A stretch of DNA of 21,686 nucleotides from a virus. Location of the stretch: the IMG/VR virus record IMGVR_UViG_3300033148_010261, positions 1 to 21,686 of that record; one strand, given 5' to 3'. The first letter of the stretch is position 1; each line of letters opens with the position of its first letter. This document shows positions 1,365-19,693 of this stretch, in pieces. The position numbers were made by a program, and so were the translations under genes. The notes below the pieces were generated by a model, which saw nothing but the letters and a program-made list of their open reading frames with translations, did no database searches and was not told where the DNA came from.

Positions 1365-2368
1365 TGAATCCTCCTTTCAATTTTATCAATGATCTCTAAA
1401 GCCCGCTCTCCCATACTATCTAAAGAAAAATGCTCTCTTACAAATTTCGAGGCTTTCCGCCCCTTTGATAAAGCCTGAGGATAATTTTTATACACTTTCA
1501 TCATAACCATACCAGCATCTTCTATATCAATATCTGCCATCCTAGTCATACAACCATAATCCATATCAACAAGGTTGTACTTAATAGGATATGAATGCCT
1601 TTTATCCATATAATCTTTCATCCCGCTCCAAGCTGGACCTAGCACAGGCAACCCAGTAGACATAGCCTCCAACGGAGGCAATCCCTGACCTTCACCACGA
1701 CTCGGAAATAAAAAAACATGAGATTTATGATACAATTTACAAAGCTCCTCTCTACTTAACTTTCGAACATCAATCTTAGCTTGAAACTTTGGGAGGTCTC
1801 TCTCATATTCATTACCACTCCTTACTGTTGATTTTATAATTAACTCTACATTATTAATACCCTTTTCAACGAAAGTCTGCAACCAAGCTTTTAACATTAA
1901 ATCATAACCTTTTCGAAAACCAGGGGCTCCGACCCATAAAAATTGAAATTTTTCGGGAGTCCTCTCCCGTTCAATAAAAGGAAAGGACTCCACATCTATG
2001 CCAAGCCTGCATGTGTAAATCGTTTTGGGGTAACCACCCCACTTTATTGCCCTCCGACTATTCTCCGAAGGCACGATTACAAAATCAGCAGGCATTATAT
2101 ATTCCATCATATCTTCCGGCATATGATGCGACTCCCACATAGTAAATAATACATTAACCTTACCCTTTACCGGAGTAAAATGCATAGGAGGAACATAATG
2201 AATATAAATACCACACTCCGGACCCCCCAAGGCGCCTACTCGCTCAAGTACCTTTGCAAATAAACTTCTCCCAGTTACATAACCTAAAACGGTATCTCTA
2301 GCCTTAAATTCAGCCTCTGTCCGCTTTGATTTTTCTCCGGCAATTACAAAAACCTTAGAAGTACTCAT
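1361..2368 (-). CDS. Glycosyltransferase, GT-B fold (GT4-like)
   Basis: 335 residues. The C-terminal half carries the standard GT4 donor-site pattern: LWVGAPGFRKGYDLMLKAW (about 144-162), the basic Arg/Lys site of the 'G-x-x-x-RKG' strand, and FPSRGEGQGLPPLEAMSTG (about 222-240), matching the E-x(7)-E motif that binds the nucleotide sugar. The N-terminal half has YIHYVPPMHF and FTMWESHHMP, typical acceptor-domain strands. It would transfer a sugar from a nucleotide donor to an acceptor that cannot be identified from sequence. The start at 2368 is supported by AGGAGGT 7 bases upstream, inside the 3' end of the polymerase gene (14-base overlap). It acts in the cytoplasm. Confidence 0.88.
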   Translation of the reverse strand: MSTSKVFVIAGEKSKRTEAEFKARDTVLGYVTGRSLFAKVLERVGALGGPECGIYIHYVPPMHFTPVKGKVNVLFTMWESHHMPEDMMEYIMPADFVIVPSENSRRAIKWGGYPKTIYTCRLGIDVESFPFIERERTPEKFQFLWVGAPGFRKGYDLMLKAWLQTFVEKGINNVELIIKSTVRSGNEYERDLPKFQAKIDVRKLSREELCKLYHKSHVFLFPSRGEGQGLPPLEAMSTGLPVLGPAWSGMKDYMDKRHSYPIKYNLVDMDYGCMTRMADIDIEDAGMVMMKVYKNYPQALSKGRKASKFVREHFSLDSMGERALEIIDKIERRIQ

Positions 2369-4502
2369 AAAAATTACCTCCTGTCATTAACATCAATTTA
2401 TCCCTGTCCTTCATATCTATAGAAGTTTTAACAGGAAGCCTCCGCTCCTCTTCCCCCAATTTTAAAATAAGCCCATTCACCCCAGGCTTGCTCTTAATGT
2501 ATGCTTTCAACTCCTCCAGCACACTTTTATTCATGGTCGCTAAAAGATGCTCAGGCAAATCTAATACAAAAATCCTCTCTCCCGGCTCCTCTTTTTCATC
2601 ACCAGAAAGCTCCTTTAAAAGCTTCTCAACATCTCCATTATAATCTTTAAGCTCTTTCATGCTCCCCCAACGATAACCAACACTTGTATTCACAGGAATT
2701 TCAATTCTAGCCCTAAAACCATCTTCCTCCTTTAAGATAAACTTTAAAACCTTCTCAGCCTCCTTTATAAATCCAGATATATTAATTTCCTCAGGAACCT
2801 CATAAGTCAAAGAGTCATGTGTAGTCATTATCAACTTTACTTTGTCTTTAAATACTTTATCCATTTTCAACATCTTCATTTTGAGAATATCTGCCGAGGT
2901 TCCCTGAATCACCGCATTATAAGCCATCCTATCAGCGTCTTCTCTCTTTTCCCAATCCCATACAGAAATATATCTACCAAAAATTGTTTCAACCCTCCCC
3001 CGCGGTCGACCCTCTTTCGCAATCTTTGAAGCCCCATCAAACATCAACCTGTACGCCTCAATGTATTTTCTCCTGAACATCTGAGCTTGTTTAAATGAAA
3101 TATCCATCTCTTCACGCAGCTCATGAAAAAGAGCATTTGCTCCCATCCCATAACTTAAAGCAAAATTCAACTTCTTTCCCAGGTACCTCTGCTTCTTCGT
3201 CACCTTGTCTAAAGGGATCTCAAACACTAAAGAAGCTGTTTTTGTATGATAATCTTCACCTTTTTGAAAAGTGTTCACCAAAGCAGGCTCCCCCGTCACA
3301 GCAGCCGCTACCCTTGCTTCGATCTGAGAATAATCAAACTCCACTAAAAAGCTCCCCTCCGGAGCTATAAAACCTTCTCTCGTATTTATTTCAATCTCTT
3401 TCCCATCTTTCAATTTCCATTTTTCTTTTCTTGGTATATTCTGTAAATTCGGAGAAGAACAACTAAACCGACCAGTAGGAACCCCAGTTTGATTATAAGA
3501 AGCATGGATACGTCCATCATCTTCAACATAACCCAGATATTTATTATAATAGGTAGTAGCTCTTTTACTTATCTCTTTGAAAGCAATAATATCACGAACA
3601 ATCGGATACTTCCACTTCATCTTGTTCAACGATTTTTTATCCACTTTAGGTCTTCCTGTCTTAGTATACCCATCACAAGGATAACCCAAAACATTAAACA
3701 AAACCTCTCCCAACTGCTGTGTGCTGGCTACATTAAAAGAAACCTCCTCCCCAGCCTCAACAGACACCTGAGCTTCAATGGATTTATGAAGAGCAGAAAG
3801 CTCCAAATCTAACCTCTCCTGCTCCTTTTTAAAATAAACCTTGTCAATTAAAACACCATTCTTTATCATCTTGTAAACAACCGGCATCAAACGACTCTCT
3901 ATTTTATAAATCAAGCTCTTCTCAACTAAAGGCTTTAACTTTTTGTAAAGAAGATAACACGCTAAGGCATCCCTCCCACAATAATCAGCCACCTTATCAG
4001 TAGGTAAAGCCCCGATTGTGGCTTTCCTCGGATTTAAACCTTCCTCCTGCATGAACTCTTTAAAACTACCAACTTTAAATGGTAACCTTTCAACTTCCGC
4101 TACCTCTTTAAGGGATAACCCACGATAACGACCTATAACATAACTCATTATCATAGGATCATATACTTCACAATTGTGGACTATACCCTCAGTCTCTTCC
4201 AAAAAACTAAGCTCAAATTGAGCATTGAATGCAATAAATGGATAATCTGTAAATAAACCTCTCAGCACCCTCATAGCCTCTACTCCATCAAAAGGCTGAT
4301 CATGCTGATGCCTAAAAGGCACATAAAAAGCCCCATCTTTTGACGTACAGATGCTTGCTCCGACGATCCGCCCGCTACTGCGGCTTAAAGAATCAGTTTC
4401 AATATCCAGACTGTACAGCACTTTTTTCTTCATCAACTGATCAACAATTCTTTTAAGCTTCTCTAAATCCCGGATAACCGGAAATTTAAAAACTTCACCC
4501 AT
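2355..4502 (-). CDS. polA: Family A DNA polymerase with 3'-5' exonuclease domain
   Basis: 715 residues from ATG at 4502, chosen because AAAGGAG lies 6 bases upstream; an in-frame ATG at 4538 would put that ribosome site inside the gene. Residues about 30-180 are a DnaQ-like exonuclease: DIETDS (Exo I, D33/E35), FNAQFEL (Exo II, with Glu where Asp is usual) and DYCGRDA (Exo III, Y174/D178). The polymerase domain has TGRFS and NLQNIPR (344-358), motif A DYSQIEARV (390-398), motif B R439-x3-K443-x3-F447-x3-Y451-G, and motif C THDS (561-564), where HDE is usual. There is no 5'-3' nuclease domain. A tail of about 90 residues (625-715) follows the usual family A end. It is the likely phage replicative polymerase. 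Array A lies directly upstream. Confidence 0.95.
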   Translation of the reverse strand: MGEVFKFPVIRDLEKLKRIVDQLMKKKVLYSLDIETDSLSRSSGRIVGASICTSKDGAFYVPFRHQHDQPFDGVEAMRVLRGLFTDYPFIAFNAQFELSFLEETEGIVHNCEVYDPMIMSYVIGRYRGLSLKEVAEVERLPFKVGSFKEFMQEEGLNPRKATIGALPTDKVADYCGRDALACYLLYKKLKPLVEKSLIYKIESRLMPVVYKMIKNGVLIDKVYFKKEQERLDLELSALHKSIEAQVSVEAGEEVSFNVASTQQLGEVLFNVLGYPCDGYTKTGRPKVDKKSLNKMKWKYPIVRDIIAFKEISKRATTYYNKYLGYVEDDGRIHASYNQTGVPTGRFSCSSPNLQNIPRKEKWKLKDGKEIEINTREGFIAPEGSFLVEFDYSQIEARVAAAVTGEPALVNTFQKGEDYHTKTASLVFEIPLDKVTKKQRYLGKKLNFALSYGMGANALFHELREEMDISFKQAQMFRRKYIEAYRLMFDGASKIAKEGRPRGRVETIFGRYISVWDWEKREDADRMAYNAVIQGTSADILKMKMLKMDKVFKDKVKLIMTTHDSLTYEVPEEINISGFIKEAEKVLKFILKEEDGFRARIEIPVNTSVGYRWGSMKELKDYNGDVEKLLKELSGDEKEEPGERIFVLDLPEHLLATMNKSVLEELKAYIKSKPGVNGLILKLGEEERRLPVKTSIDMKDRDKLMLMTGGNFYEYF

Positions 4503-4506
4503 TTCG

Positions 4507-4526
4507 CACTCCTTTAAATAAATTTT
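4507..4526. repeat. 20-bp direct repeat, copy 1 (polymerase ribosome site)
   Basis: CACTCCTTTAAATAAATTTT occurs here and identically at 5661-5680. On the minus strand it holds the AAAGGAG ribosome site of the polymerase gene; the other copy holds the ribosome site of the HNH-transposase gene. Both are followed on their upstream side by the 36-bp arrays, so the leader plus array is a duplicated block. Confidence 0.9.
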
Positions 4527-4705
4527 CGCTTTGATCACTTGGGTTCCTTGATTCTCATGACTCGCTTACAGTTAGTGGTCGTCTTGGTTTTCATGGCTCG
4601 CTTAGAGGTCGTGGACTTCTTTTCCCTCTTGGCTCGCTTACCGGTCATGGGTTTCTTTTGAAACTTGGCTCGCTTAGGTAACATGGATACCTTTCCTCTC
4701 TTGGC
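4522..4705. repeat. 36-bp tandem repeat array A
   Basis: Four full units with exact 36-bp period start at 4558, 4594, 4630 and 4666. A diverged unit lies at 4522-4557, and a fragment at 4702-4705 abuts the HNH-transposase stop codon. On the plus strand each unit reads TGGCTCGCTT, 8 variable bases, TGGgTTTCTT (looser), then 8 variable bases. The two 10-base boxes resemble each other (TGG-N-T-N-N-CTT), so the basic period may be 18 bp. The variable segments differ between units. On the minus strand the frame following the HNH-transposase stop stays open for 56 codons and would encode a Lys/Arg-rich 12-residue repeat (KRAK..KKPMTG type). It is not a CRISPR array: there are no long unique spacers. 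Confidence 0.9.
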
Positions 4706-5656
4706 TTAGTAAATCCATCCTCGCTTCTTCGGCTCAATAGTCTTGTGACCAGACTTCAAAACACTCTCTGCATATAAAGAATCTGTAGGCAGCCCCTTTA
4801 AAGTCCTCCCAACCCACCACCAGTCAGCAAGAAAATTCTTCATCACAATACGTAAACCATGCCCATGGCGATGGCTTGGCTTTACATCTTTCCAGGAACA
4901 CTCAATTAACTGCCCCTTTGTATTCCTGCTCTTAACTAATGCAACACTCCTCTCTTTCTTCGCCTTCGCTCTGTCATAAACACCCCTGTAAGCTCCCTTA
5001 GACTTCACCTGGCTGTCAGCCATTGTGTAAAGAATAGTCCTCAAATTCTTGTTGCCTCCACTGGATTTCCCCTTCGTAAACCTCTCATGACTTGAAGTAT
5101 GTAACCCAGCATATTTCCATAAACTCGAAGCATGCCGCGCCTTCTCAAGATCAATATAAACTAAACAATAAGCAACAGTCACTTCACCAACACCTTTAAC
5201 CTGAAGTGCAGACTTGGCTAAGGAGTCCAGCTCCGCATACTCCCTAACAGCCCTCTTCAACTTCTTATCCCGGTCATCTAAAACTTTCTTAACCCGCTGC
5301 CTCTCTTCTTCTAAAAAAGTAACCGTCTGTTCATTTAAAATATCAGTCTTTCTCTGATAAGCCAATAGCTGGTTATTAATTTTCATGTAAGTCTTCATAA
5401 CCTGCTTCCGGTCATCAACTAATGCTTTTAAATTCTCAAACTCTTCTTCCCGCTTTCTAAAAGTCCCATGCCTCTTCATGTGACAAATAGGATGAGCAAT
5501 TCTGTAGTTTTTAGCATCATAACCCCCTCCATTTGCCTTCGGATTAACCCTATCCGTATCAATAAGAGAATACTCTCCCTCAATAGGTAACCCACATAAT
5601 GCACAAATTTTTCCTTTCGTCTTAATGTAACTCTCTTTTAATCCTTCTTTGCTCAT
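4706..5656 (-). CDS. HNH-like domain fused to IS110-type Transposase_20 domain
   Basis: 316 residues. Residues 18-64 form an HNH-like zinc motif: C18-A-L-C21, IDTDRVNPKANGGGY (32-46) and HPICHMKRHG (55-64). The usual first catalytic His is replaced (TDRV), so cleavage by this domain is uncertain. Residues 70-150 are charged helices, probably a coiled coil. Residues 152-235 match Transposase_20, the C-terminal catalytic domain of IS110/IS1111 recombinases: VKGVGEVTVAY, LWKYAGLHTSS, then SSGGNKNLRTIL. The Ser pair at 188-189 sits where IS110 enzymes carry their catalytic Ser. The RuvC-like DEDD domain of IS110 enzymes is absent. A C-terminal segment (260-316) has SHRHGHGLRIVMKNFLADWW. ATG at 5656 has AAAGGAG 6 bases upstream. 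Identical 36-bp arrays flank both ends. It may be a mobile recombinase or a domesticated homing-type enzyme. Confidence 0.88.
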   Translation of the reverse strand: MSKEGLKESYIKTKGKICALCGLPIEGEYSLIDTDRVNPKANGGGYDAKNYRIAHPICHMKRHGTFRKREEEFENLKALVDDRKQVMKTYMKINNQLLAYQRKTDILNEQTVTFLEEERQRVKKVLDDRDKKLKRAVREYAELDSLAKSALQVKGVGEVTVAYCLVYIDLEKARHASSLWKYAGLHTSSHERFTKGKSSGGNKNLRTILYTMADSQVKSKGAYRGVYDRAKAKKERSVALVKSRNTKGQLIECSWKDVKPSHRHGHGLRIVMKNFLADWWWVGRTLKGLPTDSLYAESVLKSGHKTIEPKKRGWIY

Positions 5657-5660
5657 TGAT

Positions 5661-5680
5661 CACTCCTTTAAATAAATTTT
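5661..5680. repeat. 20-bp direct repeat, copy 2 (HNH-transposase ribosome site)
   Basis: Identical to 4507-4526. It carries the AAAGGAG ribosome site of the HNH-transposase gene on the minus strand and is followed upstream by array B. Confidence 0.9.
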
Positions 5681-5681
5681 T

Positions 5682-5861
5682 TGGTTTTCTTCGCCTTTTT
5701 GACTCGCTTTCAAGTCATGGGCTTCTCGACTGTATTGGCTCACTCTCATGCAATGGGTTTCTCGTTTATCCTGGCTCGCTTCCATGATCTAGGTTTCTTG
5801 TTGGCTGTGACTCGCTTCCAGTATCTGGGTTTCTTATTGGCTGTGACTCGCTCTTTATACC
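5682..5861. repeat. 36-bp tandem repeat array B
   Basis: Four full 36-bp units start at 5700, 5736, 5772 and 5808. A partial unit at 5844-5861 ends at the stop codon of the next gene, and a decayed half unit lies at 5682-5691 (TGGTTTTCTT). The unit pattern is the same as in array A: TGRCTCGCTT, 8 variable, TGGGTTTCTY, 8 variable. The last two units share most variable bases (CCAGTATC/CCATGATC and TTGGCTG), suggesting recent unit duplication. In the frame that gives KR..KKP repeats, this array has TGA stops, unlike array A. A plus-strand open frame (5681-5884) simply reads the repeat and starts at TTG without a ribosome site. Confidence 0.9.
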
Positions 5862-6068
5862 TTAATGATAAAAAACAAGATTAGTCAAAACCAGTTCAGC
5901 AGTCGGAGAAACAACTTCCCAAAATGGTGTTGTGATAAGATACCCATTTGGAACCATACTTACTTCTGCAACTACCCCTTTTATGTATTCGAATTTAAGC
6001 ACCTCCCCCATCCTTAAATCTTTTAACCTCTTCTTAAATTCATTTTTGTCTTTGGTGACTGTAACCAT
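5862..6068 (-). CDS. Hypothetical protein, 68 aa
   Basis: Not recognised. The first 20 residues are Lys-rich and helical (MVTVTKDKNEFKKRLKDLR); the rest looks like short beta strands (VLKFEYIKGVVAEVSMVP, GYLITTPFWEVV), possibly a small SH3- or OB-like barrel. The ribosome site AGGTGAG precedes ATG by 4 bases. Its stop codon directly abuts array B. It lies between the small membrane-protein gene and the HNH-transposase and is probably in one transcript with both. Confidence 0.65.
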   Translation of the reverse strand: MVTVTKDKNEFKKRLKDLRMGEVLKFEYIKGVVAEVSMVPNGYLITTPFWEVVSPTAELVLTNLVFYH

Positions 6069-6077
6069 TGTCTCACC

Positions 6078-6299
6078 TCACTTAGAGCCTTTACTCCAGT
6101 TAACCCAACCAATAATATTTATAATAATAAAATAAATCTGTGCTAAAAGAATAAGATATAACCCTTTCATGATGTATAGAGAAATCCAAGCAGGACTACC
6201 AATAAGAAATACTAACCACCCAACTCTTTTCTTGCGTGCTATTAATAATGCTCCGATTCCGGTAGCAATTAATGCCACAATTTCTAATATAATAAGCAT
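6078..6299 (-). CDS. Small membrane protein, PnuC-like C-terminal pattern
   Basis: 73 residues with three hydrophobic stretches: residues 2-20, about 27-44 and about 46-65, separated by RKKRVGW. The end, INIIGWVNWSKG, resembles the Trp-containing helix end of the PnuC nicotinamide riboside transporters, but the protein is only about a third of their length. It may be a reduced relative or an unrelated membrane protein. AAAGGAG lies 6 bases before the ATG, and a good promoter sits at 6368-6396, so this is probably the first gene of a leftward transcript. Confidence 0.7.
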   Translation of the reverse strand: MLIILEIVALIATGIGALLIARKKRVGWLVFLIGSPAWISLYIMKGLYLILLAQIYFIIINIIGWVNWSKGSK

Positions 6300-6367
6300 T
6301 CCTTACTCCTTTAGATACCTTCTTCCTTATATCTTTAAATTATAAATTCAGCTCCTAAAGCTCTTTA

Positions 6368-6396
6368 TATATACCGCTCTAAAATAAAAAATGCAA
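6368..6396 (-). promoter_or_regulatory. Sigma-70-type promoter, leftward
   Basis: On the minus strand: TTGCAT, 17 bases, TATATA. It lies about 70 bases upstream of the membrane-protein ATG at 6299 and just beyond the end of the delta-like gene. It probably starts the transcript for 6299 leftward, including the HNH-transposase and possibly the polymerase. Confidence 0.6.
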
Positions 6397-6400
6397 AAAT

Positions 6401-9917: not shown

Positions 9918-10640
9918 TTACTTCTTAAATTCACCATACTTTTTTTCCACCGATAACGCATACCTCAAACTAGCCTTTGGTGTTCCCTTATCATAAGCTT
10001 CCATCAAACTAGAAACCGCACGAGTACCCCAATTATAACGACTCAATGCCAACTTCCAATCATCTTTTGAAGCAACACCAAAAGCTATAAAACGCCTCTG
10101 TAACGTAATTAAACAATTAACCCCAATCATAAAATTCATAACAGGGTCTTTTAAATAAGAAATAACCTCCTCTCTAGACAAACCCGGCATATTAAAATTC
10201 TTCTCAAGAACCCCAGTAGCAGTCAAAGGCATAACCTGCATTAAACCAATAGCCCCCACATAACTCTCAGCCATAGGATTAAAACCACTCTCAACCTCAA
10301 TAACAGAAAAAATTTTCCAATAATCTAAACCAAGAGGATATGTTGTCCCTGAGGATCCATATTCCTTATGATATTTATAGGTCTTAACTGATAAATCCCT
10401 GATTTCTTGATGAGACAAATATTCTCCGGCTTTAGAAAACCAAATATCCTCTATAACCTGATAAAGCATTATATCATCACTAACTTCTTTAAAAGATTCT
10501 ATTTTAGTTACCAGGTTATTGTTTTTTTCCTCCAACCCTTCTAACCTATGGCTAACAAAGTAAAAACATAACAATGAAGCAAAAATTAAAAGAAAAAACA
10601 AAACAACCAAAATACCCATAAACACATCTCTCTTATTCAT
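9918..10640 (-). CDS. Membrane-anchored lytic transglycosylase (SLT-like)
   Basis: 240 residues. Residues 8-30 are a membrane anchor, followed by a short coiled coil (33-50). The SLT core begins near 107: FSVIEVESGFNP gives the catalytic Glu117 in the 'ES' pair, then GAIGLMQVMPLTA (129-141), the family's GLMQ..P motif, and ALSRYNWGT near 205, equivalent to the conserved 'A-Y-N-x-G' segment. It cleaves the glycan strands of peptidoglycan. With the M15 peptidase it covers both sugar and peptide bonds. Membrane anchoring suggests a role either in lysis or in DNA entry. Start overlaps the methylase end by 4 bases. Confidence 0.9.
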   Translation of the reverse strand: MNKRDVFMGILVVLFFLLIFASLLCFYFVSHRLEGLEEKNNNLVTKIESFKEVSDDIMLYQVIEDIWFSKAGEYLSHQEIRDLSVKTYKYHKEYGSSGTTYPLGLDYWKIFSVIEVESGFNPMAESYVGAIGLMQVMPLTATGVLEKNFNMPGLSREEVISYLKDPVMNFMIGVNCLITLQRRFIAFGVASKDDWKLALSRYNWGTRAVSSLMEAYDKGTPKASLRYALSVEKKYGEFKK

Positions 10641-11185
10641 CTTATAGCCTCCAAATCAAGATCACTTTCAACTTCATCCCCCCAAACATCCCAACCATAC
10701 CGCCTCTCTCTAGCAAAAAGCTCTATTTTATTAAAACCCTCTCTATCAGATACTTTATTAATAAAATGAATAAGCATAAGAGGCTTCTCTGAATGCCGCG
10801 ACCCCCTCGGAGCTAAAATAGCAGTCCTTCCCTGTTGTCTTTTACCATCCACTACTTTGTAAGGGAGCATACCTCGAACACCAAATAAACAATGCTCAGT
10901 CTGCCCCCTAAAATATTGACCTAAGCCTATTCTATCCTTCACCCACGTAATTATAGTCTTATAATCAAAACCCCAGGCTTTCATAACTTTTAAACCATCT
11001 GGCAGAAAATTATTAGTAACCCACAAATACAAATGACAATTATCATCGGCAATCTTTGCTACTGGCAATTTAATAATATCCTCTGTCTTCATCAAAGAAT
11101 AATGCCTATCGGCTCCTCTCTTTATACGACCTCCCCCTCTTTCATACCATGGAGGATCCGCATAAATAATCTGATATTTTTTCAT
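10637..11185 (-). CDS. MT-A70 family adenine-N6 DNA methyltransferase
   Basis: 182 residues. The catalytic DPPW motif is at residues 10-13 (YADPPWYE). Downstream are HYSLMKTEDIIKL (28-40), LYLWVTNNFLPDGLKV (52-67), the G-F-x-Y-K-T-x-x-T-W-V-K pattern (72-83), and RGSRHSEKPLML (127-138), all typical of MT-A70 phage methylases. SAM is the methyl donor and adenine in DNA the likely substrate. It has no partner restriction enzyme nearby, so it probably protects phage DNA or marks it for regulation. Its end overlaps the transglycosylase start by 4 bases. Confidence 0.9.
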   Translation of the reverse strand: MKKYQIIYADPPWYERGGGRIKRGADRHYSLMKTEDIIKLPVAKIADDNCHLYLWVTNNFLPDGLKVMKAWGFDYKTIITWVKDRIGLGQYFRGQTEHCLFGVRGMLPYKVVDGKRQQGRTAILAPRGSRHSEKPLMLIHFINKVSDREGFNKIELFARERRYGWDVWGDEVESDLDLEAIR

Positions 11186-11188
11186 CTC

Positions 11189-12523
11189 TCATCCTTTCAT
11201 TTCTTCTATTAATTGTTTCATATAAGCATGACCACTAAGCTCTTTATTATAAAGATAAGGTTTTACTTCTTTATCAATAAAATCTAATCGAATTGGATAC
11301 CTCCAAGTCACTCCCTTTGTCGGATGCACTCCATAAAATAACTGAGTCGGTCTATCATAAGTAAATAGTTTACTGAATGCATATTCTGTTCCACCAATAA
11401 CACTACCATTTAAAAGGATTTCTCCATTAACCTGATCTAGCTCTCCTGTATTATGAAAATGACCAAGGTTAACATAGTTCAGAATCTGATCCTTTCTCCC
11501 TACAACCTCCCGCAATTGAGCTGTCTTTCTCTGAATTCCATACCAAGGTACACCCGCCCAGCTTCTGATATTATCTCCATGAAGATTTAAGAATAACCAA
11601 TTATATATCTTCTTAGTCAAAAAGAAAGACTTAGGAAAACTACATTTAATTCTATTATTAACTGCTAGAAAAGTACCCATGAATTGATAGAAGACATAAT
11701 CCCAATTCACGTGTGGTCTTTTTGAAGGTTTCTTTTTTGTCAACCTTCCATGATTACCAACTACTCCATAAACCTCTACTTCAGGAAACACCTGAGACAA
11801 TTCCAGGATCATTTGGGCTGTCACAAAAGAACCATTCAAAGTCTGAAAAATCACATCCTCAGAATTTTCAATTAGCTCTTGATGAATCAGACCACTTACC
11901 ATATCCCCAAGACAGAAAATAATCAGCCTAGGGATTTCCTGATTATTTAAGTAGTTAACTCTCAAATTATGAACCGCATGTGCAAGATATCTCAACCTCT
12001 TATTCATAATCAAAAAGTCATACTCACCCAAACCAATCATGGCTTCTCTGTCTACAATCTCTCCAGTATGAAGGTCGCTTAATAACAAAACCGCAGTCTC
12101 TTCCGTCTTTACCCGCTGCTTATCTGGTACCCACTTCAATTCAACACTAGGAAGTGCCTTTACTTCTTCCTTTATAGTATTAACCAAACGCTCTTCTAAA
12201 GAGAGCTCTCTAGTTATTGCAGTATACTTATCAGATAACAACTTTAACTTATCCTTTAAATCTTGAATTGTGCGGTCTCTTTCAACCCGCCTTTTCACAG
12301 GAAGCTTCTCCTCCTTTTCCAATAACCGCTTCTTCTCTACCGGCACCCTTCCCATATAAGAAATTCCATTTTTATTTAAAAATTTATTTATTCCCTCTAT
12401 TGTCCTAGGAGGAAATTTTTTATTCTTGTTATGCTCTTTCATAATATCCTTAGGATGCAACCCCTTCTCATTTAAAGAAAGAACAAATTTCTTTTCTTCA
12501 AAAGTCCAATGAGCACCAGCCAT
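11189..12523 (-). CDS. Myb-like N-terminal domain plus calcineurin-type metallophosphoesterase
   Basis: 444 residues. Residues 1-55 look like a Myb/SANT-type helix-turn-helix (HWTFEEKKFVLSLNEKG...TIEGINKFLNKNG). A charged coiled coil follows (about 63-125). The phosphoesterase domain has all five motifs: SDLHTGE (D150, H152), LGDMVSG (D207), VVGNHGR (N257, H258), LHGDN (H315) and GHFHNTG (H355, H357). These bind two metal ions and hydrolyse phosphodiesters, often in DNA. With a DNA-binding head it is plausibly a nuclease or DNA-repair-type phosphodiesterase, as seen in phages. No SMC-like partner is present in the window. Start MAGAHWT has GGAG upstream. Confidence 0.88.
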   Translation of the reverse strand: MAGAHWTFEEKKFVLSLNEKGLHPKDIMKEHNKNKKFPPRTIEGINKFLNKNGISYMGRVPVEKKRLLEKEEKLPVKRRVERDRTIQDLKDKLKLLSDKYTAITRELSLEERLVNTIKEEVKALPSVELKWVPDKQRVKTEETAVLLLSDLHTGEIVDREAMIGLGEYDFLIMNKRLRYLAHAVHNLRVNYLNNQEIPRLIIFCLGDMVSGLIHQELIENSEDVIFQTLNGSFVTAQMILELSQVFPEVEVYGVVGNHGRLTKKKPSKRPHVNWDYVFYQFMGTFLAVNNRIKCSFPKSFFLTKKIYNWLFLNLHGDNIRSWAGVPWYGIQRKTAQLREVVGRKDQILNYVNLGHFHNTGELDQVNGEILLNGSVIGGTEYAFSKLFTYDRPTQLFYGVHPTKGVTWRYPIRLDFIDKEVKPYLYNKELSGHAYMKQLIEEMKG

Positions 12524-14169: not shown

Positions 14170-14364
14170 TCACTCCTTTTTCCCCATACTTTTGTTATTT
14201 TCATTCGATTTCTCCTTAAAGTTATCCCGAATATCACAAAGGACTTCTATGATAAATTCAAAACCCCATCGTAAAATCAATGCCATATCGGCAGTGTTTG
14301 TTCTACAGGAAGTTGTTTGTAAAAAACCACTTACTATTTCCTCTTTACTTCTTTGTTTAGTCAT
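14170..14364 (-). CDS. Hypothetical protein, 64 aa
   Basis: Not recognised. It is helical with a hydrophobic centre (TADMALILRWGFEFIIEVLCDI) and a charged end (NFKEKSNENNKSMGKKE). Its ATG overlaps the end of the upstream zinc-ribbon gene by 4 bases (ATGA). Confidence 0.6.
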   Translation of the reverse strand: MTKQRSKEEIVSGFLQTTSCRTNTADMALILRWGFEFIIEVLCDIRDNFKEKSNENNKSMGKKE

Positions 14365-14555
14365 TTCTTGCCCCTTACCCTTTCATTCCATGCCTCTTTA
14401 GCACCCTGACTTGTATGTGCTTTCGGACCAAGAGCTCCACAATATTCACAACGAATTTGAATCGGTTCGATTTGTGGTTCCAAGAAAAAATTAAATAATT
14501 TCTGCTTACGACTGCCACAAAATGGGCAAGGTTTTAATTCGATTTGTTTAGTCAT
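14361..14555 (-). CDS. Possible separate Lar-like product (internal start), 64 aa
   Basis: Starts at MTKQIELKPCPFCG. AAGGAGATGAAAATG gives a strong ribosome site. The Lar-like family normally begins close to this point. Both the long and the short product may exist. Confidence 0.5.
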   Translation of the reverse strand: MTKQIELKPCPFCGSRKQKLFNFFLEPQIEPIQIRCEYCGALGPKAHTSQGAKEAWNERVRGKK

Positions 14556-14783
14556 TTTCATCTCCTTCTTGGGAGTTTTAACATACTGCGGAAATCTGTA
14601 GGTGCAGTCTTGGCAATATACGTTTAGAAACTCGACCCCTGACCAGTCAGAATCACGATAAGGACTAAACACCCCCCCACCAATCTGGTATGTTCGTCGT
14701 GTTTTTCCACCGCACTTAGGACATTTAGGCGGATTCTCTGTAAAAGGAACCCTATCCTCTGGATAGTAAGTGTAATCACTCAT
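14361..14783 (-). CDS. Double zinc-ribbon protein with Lar-like C-terminal half
   Basis: 140 residues. The N-terminal ribbon has CPKC (21-24) and CQDC (57-60). The C-terminal ribbon has LKPCPFCGSRK (83-93) and CEYCGALGPKAHTSQGAKEAWNER (112-135), which follows the Lar restriction-alleviation family pattern: C-x-x-C-G, C-x-x-C-G-A, then A-x-x-A-W-N-x-R. An internal ATG at 14555 has AAGGAG a few bases upstream, so a 64-residue Lar-like protein may also be made. This is either a fusion of two phage zinc proteins or a gene with two starts. Confidence 0.8.
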   Translation of the reverse strand: MSDYTYYPEDRVPFTENPPKCPKCGGKTRRTYQIGGGVFSPYRDSDWSGVEFLNVYCQDCTYRFPQYVKTPKKEMKMTKQIELKPCPFCGSRKQKLFNFFLEPQIEPIQIRCEYCGALGPKAHTSQGAKEAWNERVRGKK

Positions 14784-18002: not shown

Positions 18003-18061
18003 TAAATGTTCATTGACAAATAGAGTCTCTTAAACAGTTGCATTGCATTGACTCTTATCTC

Positions 18062-18089
18062 GTTTATGTTGTTCATGGAGTCTATGACA
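18062..18089. repeat. 28-bp inverted repeat, left arm
   Basis: Pairs with 18608-18635 as reverse complement at 27 of 28 positions. It lies in the leader of the 115-residue gene. See the right arm. Confidence 0.95.
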
Positions 18090-18110
18090 AAACTAAAAAG
18101 GATAGACAAA

Positions 18111-18458
18111 ATGACACAAAAACAAAATAACAAAAATGAAGAGAGTATATCTCTTAACTCTATTGCTGGAGCTAGTGGAGCTAGCTTTGACACAATAGTC
18201 AAGGATATTAAAGAACTTGGTGAATTACGGCTAGCCGATATAAAAAGCTATAAAGATAAGGTTATAGCAGATTATAGAGGCAAAGGAAAACACTTGTTTT
18301 TTGTACAAGGTAAAACTAGAAATTGGAGTGTTGGGGCTACTTCTCTTAAAAGACTAGAAAAAGAAACAGGTATGCAGGCAGTGATGGACAAAAGCTTGCT
18401 AGACAAATTTCTGAATAGCAAGCATATTGTACTTTACAGGAACGCCAAAACAGAATAA
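18111..18458 (+). CDS. Hypothetical protein, 115 aa, rightward operon
   Basis: ATG at 18111 has AAGGA 8 bases upstream. Two in-frame ATGs upstream, at 18084 and earlier, sit inside the inverted repeat and lack a ribosome site. The N-terminus is polar (MTQKQNNKNEE), then SLNSIAGASGASFDTIVKDI (a helix-rich region that might bind DNA), and a basic stretch (KGKHLFFVQGKTRNW). No known motif was recognised. It is the first of three genes and is flanked by the 28-bp inverted repeats. It could be a regulator of the origin region. Confidence 0.75.
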   Translation: MTQKQNNKNEESISLNSIAGASGASFDTIVKDIKELGELRLADIKSYKDKVIADYRGKGKHLFFVQGKTRNWSVGATSLKRLEKETGMQAVMDKSLLDKFLNSKHIVLYRNAKTE

Positions 18459-18607: not shown

Positions 18608-18635
18608 TGTCATAGACTCCATTAACAACATAAAC
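18608..18635. repeat. 28-bp inverted repeat, right arm
   Basis: Reverse complement of 18062-18089 with one mismatch. The pair encloses 518 bases holding the 115-residue gene and the 42-residue gene, and leaves the 63-residue gene just outside. Confidence 0.95.
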
Positions 18636-18970: not shown

Positions 18971-19003
18971 AATTAATCCGAGTAAATCGATCGGGTAAAT
19001 AAC

Positions 19004-19048
19004 TTCTAAATTAATAATTATTCTAAATTAAAAATAATTCTAAATAAG
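19004..19048. repeat. AT-rich 17-bp tandem repeats (three)
   Basis: TTCTAAATTAATAATTA at 19004-19020, TTCTAAATTAAAAATAA at 19021-19037, then TTCTAAATAAG from 19038. A related TTCTAAATTAAAAA lies at 19570. AT-rich tandem repeats next to binding sites are typical of the unwinding part of an origin. Confidence 0.75.
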
Positions 19049-19059
19049 CCCCGACCTGC

Positions 19060-19200
19060 CAAACCCTATTTCCGCCCCTTTTGCCACCCGAAACCAATCT
19101 ACCTACCAGCCAACCTACCCACGTCTGCAACCTCTATATTAAAAGAAAAAACAACCTACCCATCCAACCCTATTTCCGACCTCTATGCCGCGAGAAACCA
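19060..19200. repeat. Two 37-bp C-rich direct repeats
   Basis: 19060-19096 and 19164-19200 match at about 29 of 37 positions, sharing AACCCTATTTCCG, TGCC and GAAACCA. They lie between the AT-rich 17-mers and the paired GTAACCTACC repeats. No gene is seen in this stretch. Confidence 0.7.
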
Positions 19201-19260
19201 TAACCATTTCTCAAAATGGTTAAAATATCCAGTGAAAATTCATACCTCCAACCCCCTTTG

Positions 19261-19445
19261 TTAACCTACCTCCCACCATGTAACCTACCTCCTCGATATC
19301 CAGTGAGAAAATGGTGGTTTTTTCTTCAGTAACCTACCGTATCTTGGGTAACCTACCTTGGTAACCTACCACATGTCGTGTAACCTACCTCCATACACAC
19401 CTAGGGTTAAACTAACCACATCCAGAAGCGAATTGGTAACCTACC
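19261..19445. repeat. Paired GTAACCTACC repeats (iterons)
   Basis: Perfect copies at 19280, 19329, 19348, 19361, 19380 and 19436, and TTAACCTACC at 19261. Three pairs are exactly 19 bp apart (19261/19280, 19329/19348, 19361/19380), each with a different 9-base spacer. Looser AACCTACC copies lie at 19112, 19153 and 19641. An initiator or partition protein bound at pairs of sites would fit. The repeat region has no believable gene on either strand. Confidence 0.85.
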
Positions 19446-19550
19446 AGTGCATGTAAGTTGTTGATAAGGTTGAGTTTATGCATACCCAGCCTGCCTCCCC
19501 ACCAACCCCCTTAACTTCTACCCCAGTTATCCTACAACCATCCCCATTCT

Positions 19551-19592
19551 TTACACCAGCTTAGAACCATTCTAAATTAAAAACTGGTGTAA
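19551..19592. other. Nested hairpin / cruciform
   Basis: TTACACCAG (19551-19559) pairs with CTGGTGTAA (19584-19592); inside it TTAGAA pairs with TTCTAA (19561-19575). No T run follows, so it is not a clear terminator. Confidence 0.6.
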
Positions 19593-19693
19593 CTTAATAA
19601 CCACTATAACTACCCCCCTCTACACTACCTACCACTATATAACCTACCTCTACCTACTACCTCCCCTTTATATATAACCACATACCTTGTATG

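What the first reader, a model, noticed from the sequence alone, without database searches (positions are those of the whole stretch)
4507..5861. HNH-like / Transposase_20 fusion framed by two matching 36-bp arrays
The protein joins an HNH-like zinc domain to the catalytic C-terminal domain of IS110 recombinases but lacks the RuvC-like DEDD domain that IS110 enzymes need. IS110 enzymes use a structured bridge RNA encoded next to the gene. Here both ends of the gene carry the same array, with conserved 10-base boxes alternating with 8-base variable segments. The arrays could make a guide or bridge-like RNA, or be recombination sites. The domains and arrays are seen; the RNA idea is inference.
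Basis: partly seen in the sequence, partly recalled or inferred. Interest (0 to 1): 0.88.

Follow-up and report, generated by a model that had tools for sequence, protein, structure and literature searches.

The report
TIGR-TasH RNA-guided DNA cutter in phage
This phage stretch carries a recently described type of RNA-guided DNA-cutting system (TIGR-TasH), with two short guide arrays on either side of its nuclease gene; it is a clear new member of a known kind, and what its guides aim at is still unknown.

Summary
In detail: on the minus strand, two 36-bp arrays (10-base box, 8 variable, 10-base box, 8 variable) flank a 316-aa HNH plus Transposase_20-like protein. "Bridge RNA", "IS110-like recombinase" and "recombination sites" are not supported.

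This is a TIGR-TasH system (Faure et al., Science 2025, PMC12045711). The protein passes NCBIfam's curated TIGR_Tas_endo cutoff and fails the IS110 cutoff. It is 46-49% identical to SpTasH of Salicola phage CGphi29, which has been tested biochemically and solved by cryo-EM. The edge repeat (AAGCGAGYCA), 8-nt spacers and 36-nt period equal those of SpTIGR. All 23 further TasH loci found in IMG/VR carry same-strand arrays. The edge repeats show the base-pair covariation expected of a tigRNA.

Nine complete tigRNAs (36-nt guides) are encoded. Each should direct a TasH dimer to about 16 bp of DNA, spacer A pairing with one strand and spacer B with the other. No target was found: five composite targets gave roughly chance-level hits in IMG/VR.

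Modest extras: the arrays sit in the leaders of tasH and polA without an obvious terminator. Two related phages keep shared spacers nearly unchanged while other units are replaced mid-array.

The parts
4706..5656 (-). tasH gene (316 aa): N-terminal HNH nuclease (about residues 1-65; D33, N50, H59), coiled coil (71-141), Nop-type RNA-binding C-terminal domain (145-316)
   Evidence: NCBIfam NF052498 TIGR_Tas_endo 117 bits, cutoff 100; PDB TasH 1.1e-89; AlphaFold model pLDDT 89, Foldseek top hits are TasH-tigRNA complexes, Z 30
5682..5853 (-). Upstream TIGR array: edges at 5853-5844, 5817-5808, 5781-5772, 5745-5736, 5709-5700; four complete units with spacers A/B CAGCCAAT/GATACTGG, CAGCCAAC/GATCATGG, GGATAAAC/TTGCATGA, ATACAGTC/TGACTTGA; a fifth unit (AAAAGGCG) ends after its loop repeat
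   Evidence: none in 100 shuffles
4526..4705 (-). Downstream TIGR array: 5'-truncated edge GCCA (4705-4702) directly after the tasH stop codon, five units with spacers A/B AGAGAGGA/TGTTACCT, AGTTTCAA/TGACCGGT, AGAGGGAA/CGACCTCT, TGAAAACC/CTAACTGT, TGAGAATC/AGTGATCA, 3'-truncated edge AAGCGA (4531-4526)
   Evidence: the truncated first and last edge match the published array anatomy
5661..5680 (-). 20-bp direct repeat AAAATTTATTTAAAGGAGTG, leader with ribosome-binding site of tasH
   Evidence: 20-bp perfect match to 4507-4526; shuffled 95th percentile is 10
4507..4526 (-). Second copy of the 20-bp repeat, leader with ribosome-binding site of polA (ATG at 4502-4500)
2355..4502 (-). Family A DNA polymerase gene (715 aa) directly downstream of the array; its leader carries the array end
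   Evidence: Pfam DNA_pol_A 3e-91; phrog_17

Best explanation
A phage-borne TIGR-TasH system. The two arrays are transcribed with the gene and cut in the middle of each edge repeat into 36-nt tigRNAs (half edge, spacer A, loop, spacer B, half edge). A TasH dimer binds one tigRNA through its two Nop domains, one on the edge and one on the loop repeat. It searches DNA for a site in which spacer A pairs with one strand and spacer B with the other; the top strand of a target reads spacer A, a 0-2 nt gap, then the reverse complement of B. Each HNH domain nicks one strand, giving a staggered double-strand break without a PAM. Shown here: gene, predicted fold, arrays, unit anatomy, covariation, conservation of the arrangement. 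Inferred from the characterised relatives SpTasH and TaTasR: processing, pairing rule, cleavage. Most likely biological role (inference only): destruction of competing mobile DNA in the same host.
For: NCBIfam TIGR_Tas_endo 117.1 bits, cutoff 100. SpTasH 46-49% identical over the full length, PDB TasH E 1e-89. AlphaFold model matches TasH-tigRNA-dsDNA 9w04 at Z 30.3 over 308 residues. Same edge AAGCGAGYCA, 8-nt spacers and 36-bp period as SpTIGR. Arrays at 23 of 23 IMG/VR TasH loci, same strand. Edge positions 4-7 covary C-G/U-A (245 of 254 paired, 193 expected; top mutual information 0.67 bits) while the loop repeat does not (56 against 55), as described for TasR edges. Truncated first and last edges as published.
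Against: No RNA, cleavage or target data for this locus. No target was found. No rho-independent terminator on the minus strand by a simple scan, although published arrays typically end in one. HNH Pfam score is just below cutoff, although the HNH residues D33 and N50 are invariant and H59 nearly so.
Confidence: 0.95

Rival explanations
1. An IS110-like RNA-guided recombinase with a bridge RNA, in which an HNH domain has replaced the DEDD domain.
For: Transposase_20 match; IS621 and ISCro4 structures match the Nop/coiled-coil part at Z about 15.
Against: IS110 equivalog 43.8 bits against a cutoff of 140; no DEDD domain; many 36-nt units with different spacers rather than one bridge RNA; nearest solved relatives are TasH nucleases at Z 30.
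Confidence: 0.02
2. The arrays are protein-binding or recombination sites (iterons, attachment sites) and are not transcribed guides.
For: Repeats flank the gene on both sides; a 20-bp direct repeat precedes tasH and polA.
Against: Variable 8-nt segments differ in nearly every unit; arrays are always on the gene's strand, often on one side only; the edge covariation is that of paired RNA and is absent from the loop repeat; homologous arrays are known to be processed to 36-nt RNAs.
Confidence: 0.02
3. A TIGR-TasH system that has lost cutting activity and acts by binding (silencing a gene), or is decaying.
For: Short arrays (9 complete units); the last upstream unit lacks its 3' edge; some edges deviate (GAGTGAGCCA); other Tas proteins have no nuclease.
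Against: Open reading frame is intact and HNH residues D33, N50, H59 are kept.
Confidence: 0.08

Closest known systems
SpTIGR-TasH, Salicola phage CGphi29 (HQ634153; PDB 9w04, 9vzx, 21kl)
   Same: HNH-Nop protein, 46-49% identity over full length; edge AAGCGAGYCA; 8-nt spacers; 36-nt period; phage genome; same-strand array downstream.
   Different: Loop AAGAAACCCA instead of AAGACAACCA; arrays on both sides instead of downstream only; no terminator found; lies between a short ORF and polA.
TIGR-TasR (Thermoproteota LB_CRA_1, PDB 9mty)
   Same: Nop domain, coiled coil, dual-repeat array, 36-nt units, edge pair covariation.
   Different: RuvC instead of HNH nuclease; 9-nt spacers; UG/CCA boxes instead of AG/YCA.
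IS110/IS621 bridge-RNA recombinases (PDB 8wt6)
   Same: Nop-like RNA-binding and coiled-coil region (Z about 15).
   Different: DEDD catalytic domain, single bridge RNA, recombination; none of these found here.

Membership tests
TIGR-TasH | Nop-domain protein of the Tas family | tested here: met
   NCBIfam NF052498 117.1 bits, cutoff 100; TasH fold Z 30
TIGR-TasH | N-terminal HNH nuclease domain with conserved residues | tested here: met
   PF01844 20.4 bits, slightly under cutoff 21.4; full-length match to TasH chain 9w04_B; D33 and N50 invariant, H59 nearly so in 24 proteins
TIGR-TasH | Adjacent array of two alternating 8-12 nt repeats with short spacers, 36-nt unit | tested here: met
   0 matches in 100 shuffles; 8-nt spacers as in SpTIGR
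[quoted passage not shown]
   Met for the downstream array (GCCA 4705-4702, AAGCGA 4531-4526); the upstream array starts with a near-full edge and ends after a loop repeat
TIGR-TasH | Array followed by a rho-independent terminator (typical, not defining) | tested here: inconclusive
   None on the minus strand in a simple consensus scan of 4300-6400
TIGR-TasH | Processing into 36-nt tigRNAs bound by the protein | not testable with these tools
   Shown for SpTasH in PMC12045711, not for this locus
TIGR-TasH | tigRNA-guided dsDNA cleavage, spacers on opposite strands | not testable with these tools
   Shown for SpTasH and TaTasR
IS110 recombinase | Passes the curated IS110 equivalog model | tested here: not met
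   NF033542 43.8 bits, cutoff 140
IS110 recombinase | N-terminal RuvC-like DEDD catalytic domain | tested here: not met
   The N-terminus is HNH and aligns full length with TasH chain 9w04_B
IS110 recombinase | Single structured bridge RNA next to the gene | tested here: not met
   Two arrays of many short units instead; no Rfam family at gathering threshold

The most novel reading that the evidence does not exclude
Because both arrays sit in the leaders of tasH and polA inside what looks like one operon without an obvious terminator, cutting out guides would also cut these messages. Guide production would then be coupled to, and could tune, TasH and phage DNA polymerase expression.
Probability: 0.15. 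Interest if true: 0.5.

Novelty: new member of a known kind. Interest (0 to 1): 0.3.

Why it matters
TIGR-Tas systems were described only in 2025, and TasH has few characterised members. This locus and the related ones parsed here give 282 guide units for asking what TIGR guides target and how arrays change, which the discovery paper lists as open. In one pair of related phages (L005/L006), shared guides are nearly unchanged while third codon positions have drifted about 20%, so the guides appear to be under selection, and whole units are swapped in the middle of the array, unlike CRISPR's end-on growth. That is one pair only.

Tried and rejected
(1) Target search in 1.09 Mb of held loci (282 units, gap 0-2): no exact A+rc(B) match and no self match at up to one mismatch; the other three geometries and mispaired controls gave as many or more hits. 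(3) The idea that near-duplicate units differ at codon-third positions of a coding target: one pair (L013) fits, others do not; too few pairs. (4) Empty site: no relative of this phage's polA was found in IMG/VR by pattern scan and no near relative in GenBank phages, so exact cassette ends could not be tested. (5) Leader repeats as general cassette ends: seen in the window and in Microcystis phage Mvi-JY20, not in 24 other TasH loci. (6) TasH in cellular genomes: two pattern scans of GTDB genomes found none. (7) PADLOC weak hits (LmuB, BrxL) are most likely coiled-coil similarity. (8) Whether such arrays occur without a tas gene was not tested.

Full report
What is there. The window is a 21,686-bp IMG/VR virus record, with genes almost all on the minus strand: a glycosyltransferase, a family A DNA polymerase, an MT-A70 methylase, a phosphoesterase/exonuclease, lysis genes and others. 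ORF 4706-5656 (-) encodes 316 aa with an HNH-like N-terminus and a Transposase_20 match. On both sides lie arrays with a 36-bp period, on the same strand: edge AAGCGAGYCA, 8 nt, loop AAGAAACCCA, 8 nt. The combined pattern gives 8 matches at up to three mismatches and none in 100 shuffles.

Anatomy. Downstream array, reading the minus strand: the stop codon TAA is followed at once by GCCA (a 5'-truncated edge), then five units, then AAGCGA (a 3'-truncated edge) at 4531-4526. The next bases, AAATTTATTTAAAGGAGTG, are the leader and ribosome-binding site of polA, whose ATG is at 4502 (not the GTG at 4538 listed mechanically). Upstream array: it starts nine bases after the stop of ORF 5862-6068 and has five edges and four complete units; the fifth unit ends after its loop repeat and runs into the tasH leader, which repeats the same 20 bp. 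Nine complete guides in all.

Identity. The protein passes NCBIfam NF052498 'TIGR-Tas system RNA-guided endonuclease' (117.1 bits, cutoff 100) and fails IS110 NF033542 (43.8, cutoff 140). It matches the solved TasH over its full length (E 1e-89); its nearest GenBank phage relative is SpTasH of Salicola phage CGphi29. The SpTIGR array read from HQ634153 has the same edge consensus, 8-nt spacers and 36-bp period. An AlphaFold model built from 21 sequences (mean pLDDT 89) matches TasH-tigRNA-dsDNA at Z 30, TasR at 19.5 and IS621 at 15.7. [quoted passage not shown]

Test of the association. A profile-guided scan of IMG/VR returned 23 nearly full-length TasH loci. All 23 have arrays on the gene's strand: 21 found with the window's own edge pattern, and L013 and L014 with a diverged edge AAATGAATCA. 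No TasH was found by two scans of GTDB genomes, in agreement with a viral habitat, though pattern scans are not exhaustive. Neighbouring genes differ among loci; a polA relative lies within about 6 kb of tasH in six of them, including the window.

Covariation. Across 254 units (near-identical loci removed) edge positions 4 and 7 are the strongest covarying pair (0.67 bits; next 0.24): C-G 134, U-A 100, U-G 11; 245 paired against 193 expected by independence. Positions 3 and 8 are G-C, G-U or A-U in most units. The loop repeat shows no 4-7 pairing (56 against 55 expected). This is the rule reported for TasR edges, here seen in TasH arrays. Both C-G and U-A occur within single arrays (L026, L014), so the changes are not only inherited by descent; still, sequences are related and the counts are not independent events.

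Targets. From the published C-5 rule and the 8-nt 3' overhang I derived that the top strand of a target reads spacer A, 0-2 nt, reverse complement of B (inference). With 282 units no exact site exists in 1.09 Mb of held loci, and no self-site at up to one mismatch. IMG/VR scans for five composites gave 29-82 hits each, about the number that chance should give, with no shared gene for the two window guides and none from the source metagenomes of L005/L006. The target question stays open.

Array change. L005 and L006 are related phages (tasH 91.7% identical; 64 of 78 differences at third codon positions). Of 15 units each, seven are shared in order with 2 changes in 112 spacer bases, against 64 of 313 third codon positions (Fisher p 2e-7); an eighth keeps spacer A and differs in four bases of spacer B; the others are unrelated and lie between or beside shared ones. 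Units were matched by spacer similarity, which could bias this, but no pair shows intermediate divergence apart from that eighth unit. Within arrays, near-duplicate units occur (the first two of the window's upstream array, L010, L013, L021), suggesting growth by unit duplication.

Verdict. Ordinary in kind, well supported: a new TIGR-TasH member. What is unusual is the placement of both arrays in gene leaders without an obvious terminator. That guide excision affects tasH and polA expression is a guess.

Noticed in passing
window 4507-4526 and 5661-5680 (-); L003 2915-2951 and 4044-4080: Perfect direct repeats (20 bp in the window, 37 bp in Microcystis phage Mvi-JY20) precede both the tas gene and the gene after its array; possible cassette junctions. 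Not seen in 24 other TasH loci.
   Followed up: partly
L157 1920-2965 (Mycobacterium phage Moose gp72, MH479919): A group of mycobacteriophage genes annotated 'transposase' matches the Nop part at about 30% identity; upstream lie about four hairpins with variable interiors, which look like the stem-loop type of TIGR array, near Cas4-like exonuclease and DnaB genes.
   Followed up: partly
L003 2953-4020 (Microcystis phage Mvi-JY20): Gene annotated hypothetical looks like a TasA (no nuclease domain) and is followed by a dual-repeat array (edge ATGCGAGCC, loop ACGAAACCC, 9-nt spacers).
   Followed up: partly
L005 and L006, about 10945-11500: Related phages share seven identical or nearly identical TIGR units in order, an eighth with only spacer A kept, and unrelated units in between: internal turnover of units, not growth at one end.
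   Followed up: yes
window 18062-18089 and 18608-18635: 28-nt inverted repeat, 96% complementary; the left arm lies inside a plus-strand ORF (18048-18458) and the right arm beyond its end.
   Followed up: no
window 18997-19651: Largely non-coding stretch with repeated AACCTACCTCC and TTCTAAATTAA motifs, possibly a replication origin.
   Followed up: no
window 14361-14783 (-) and 10637-11185 (-): Lar-like restriction alleviation protein and MT-A70 DNA methylase, possible anti-restriction genes.
   Followed up: no
window 5681-5884 (+): ORF of 12-aa repeats is the reverse strand of the upstream array, not a gene.
   Followed up: yes
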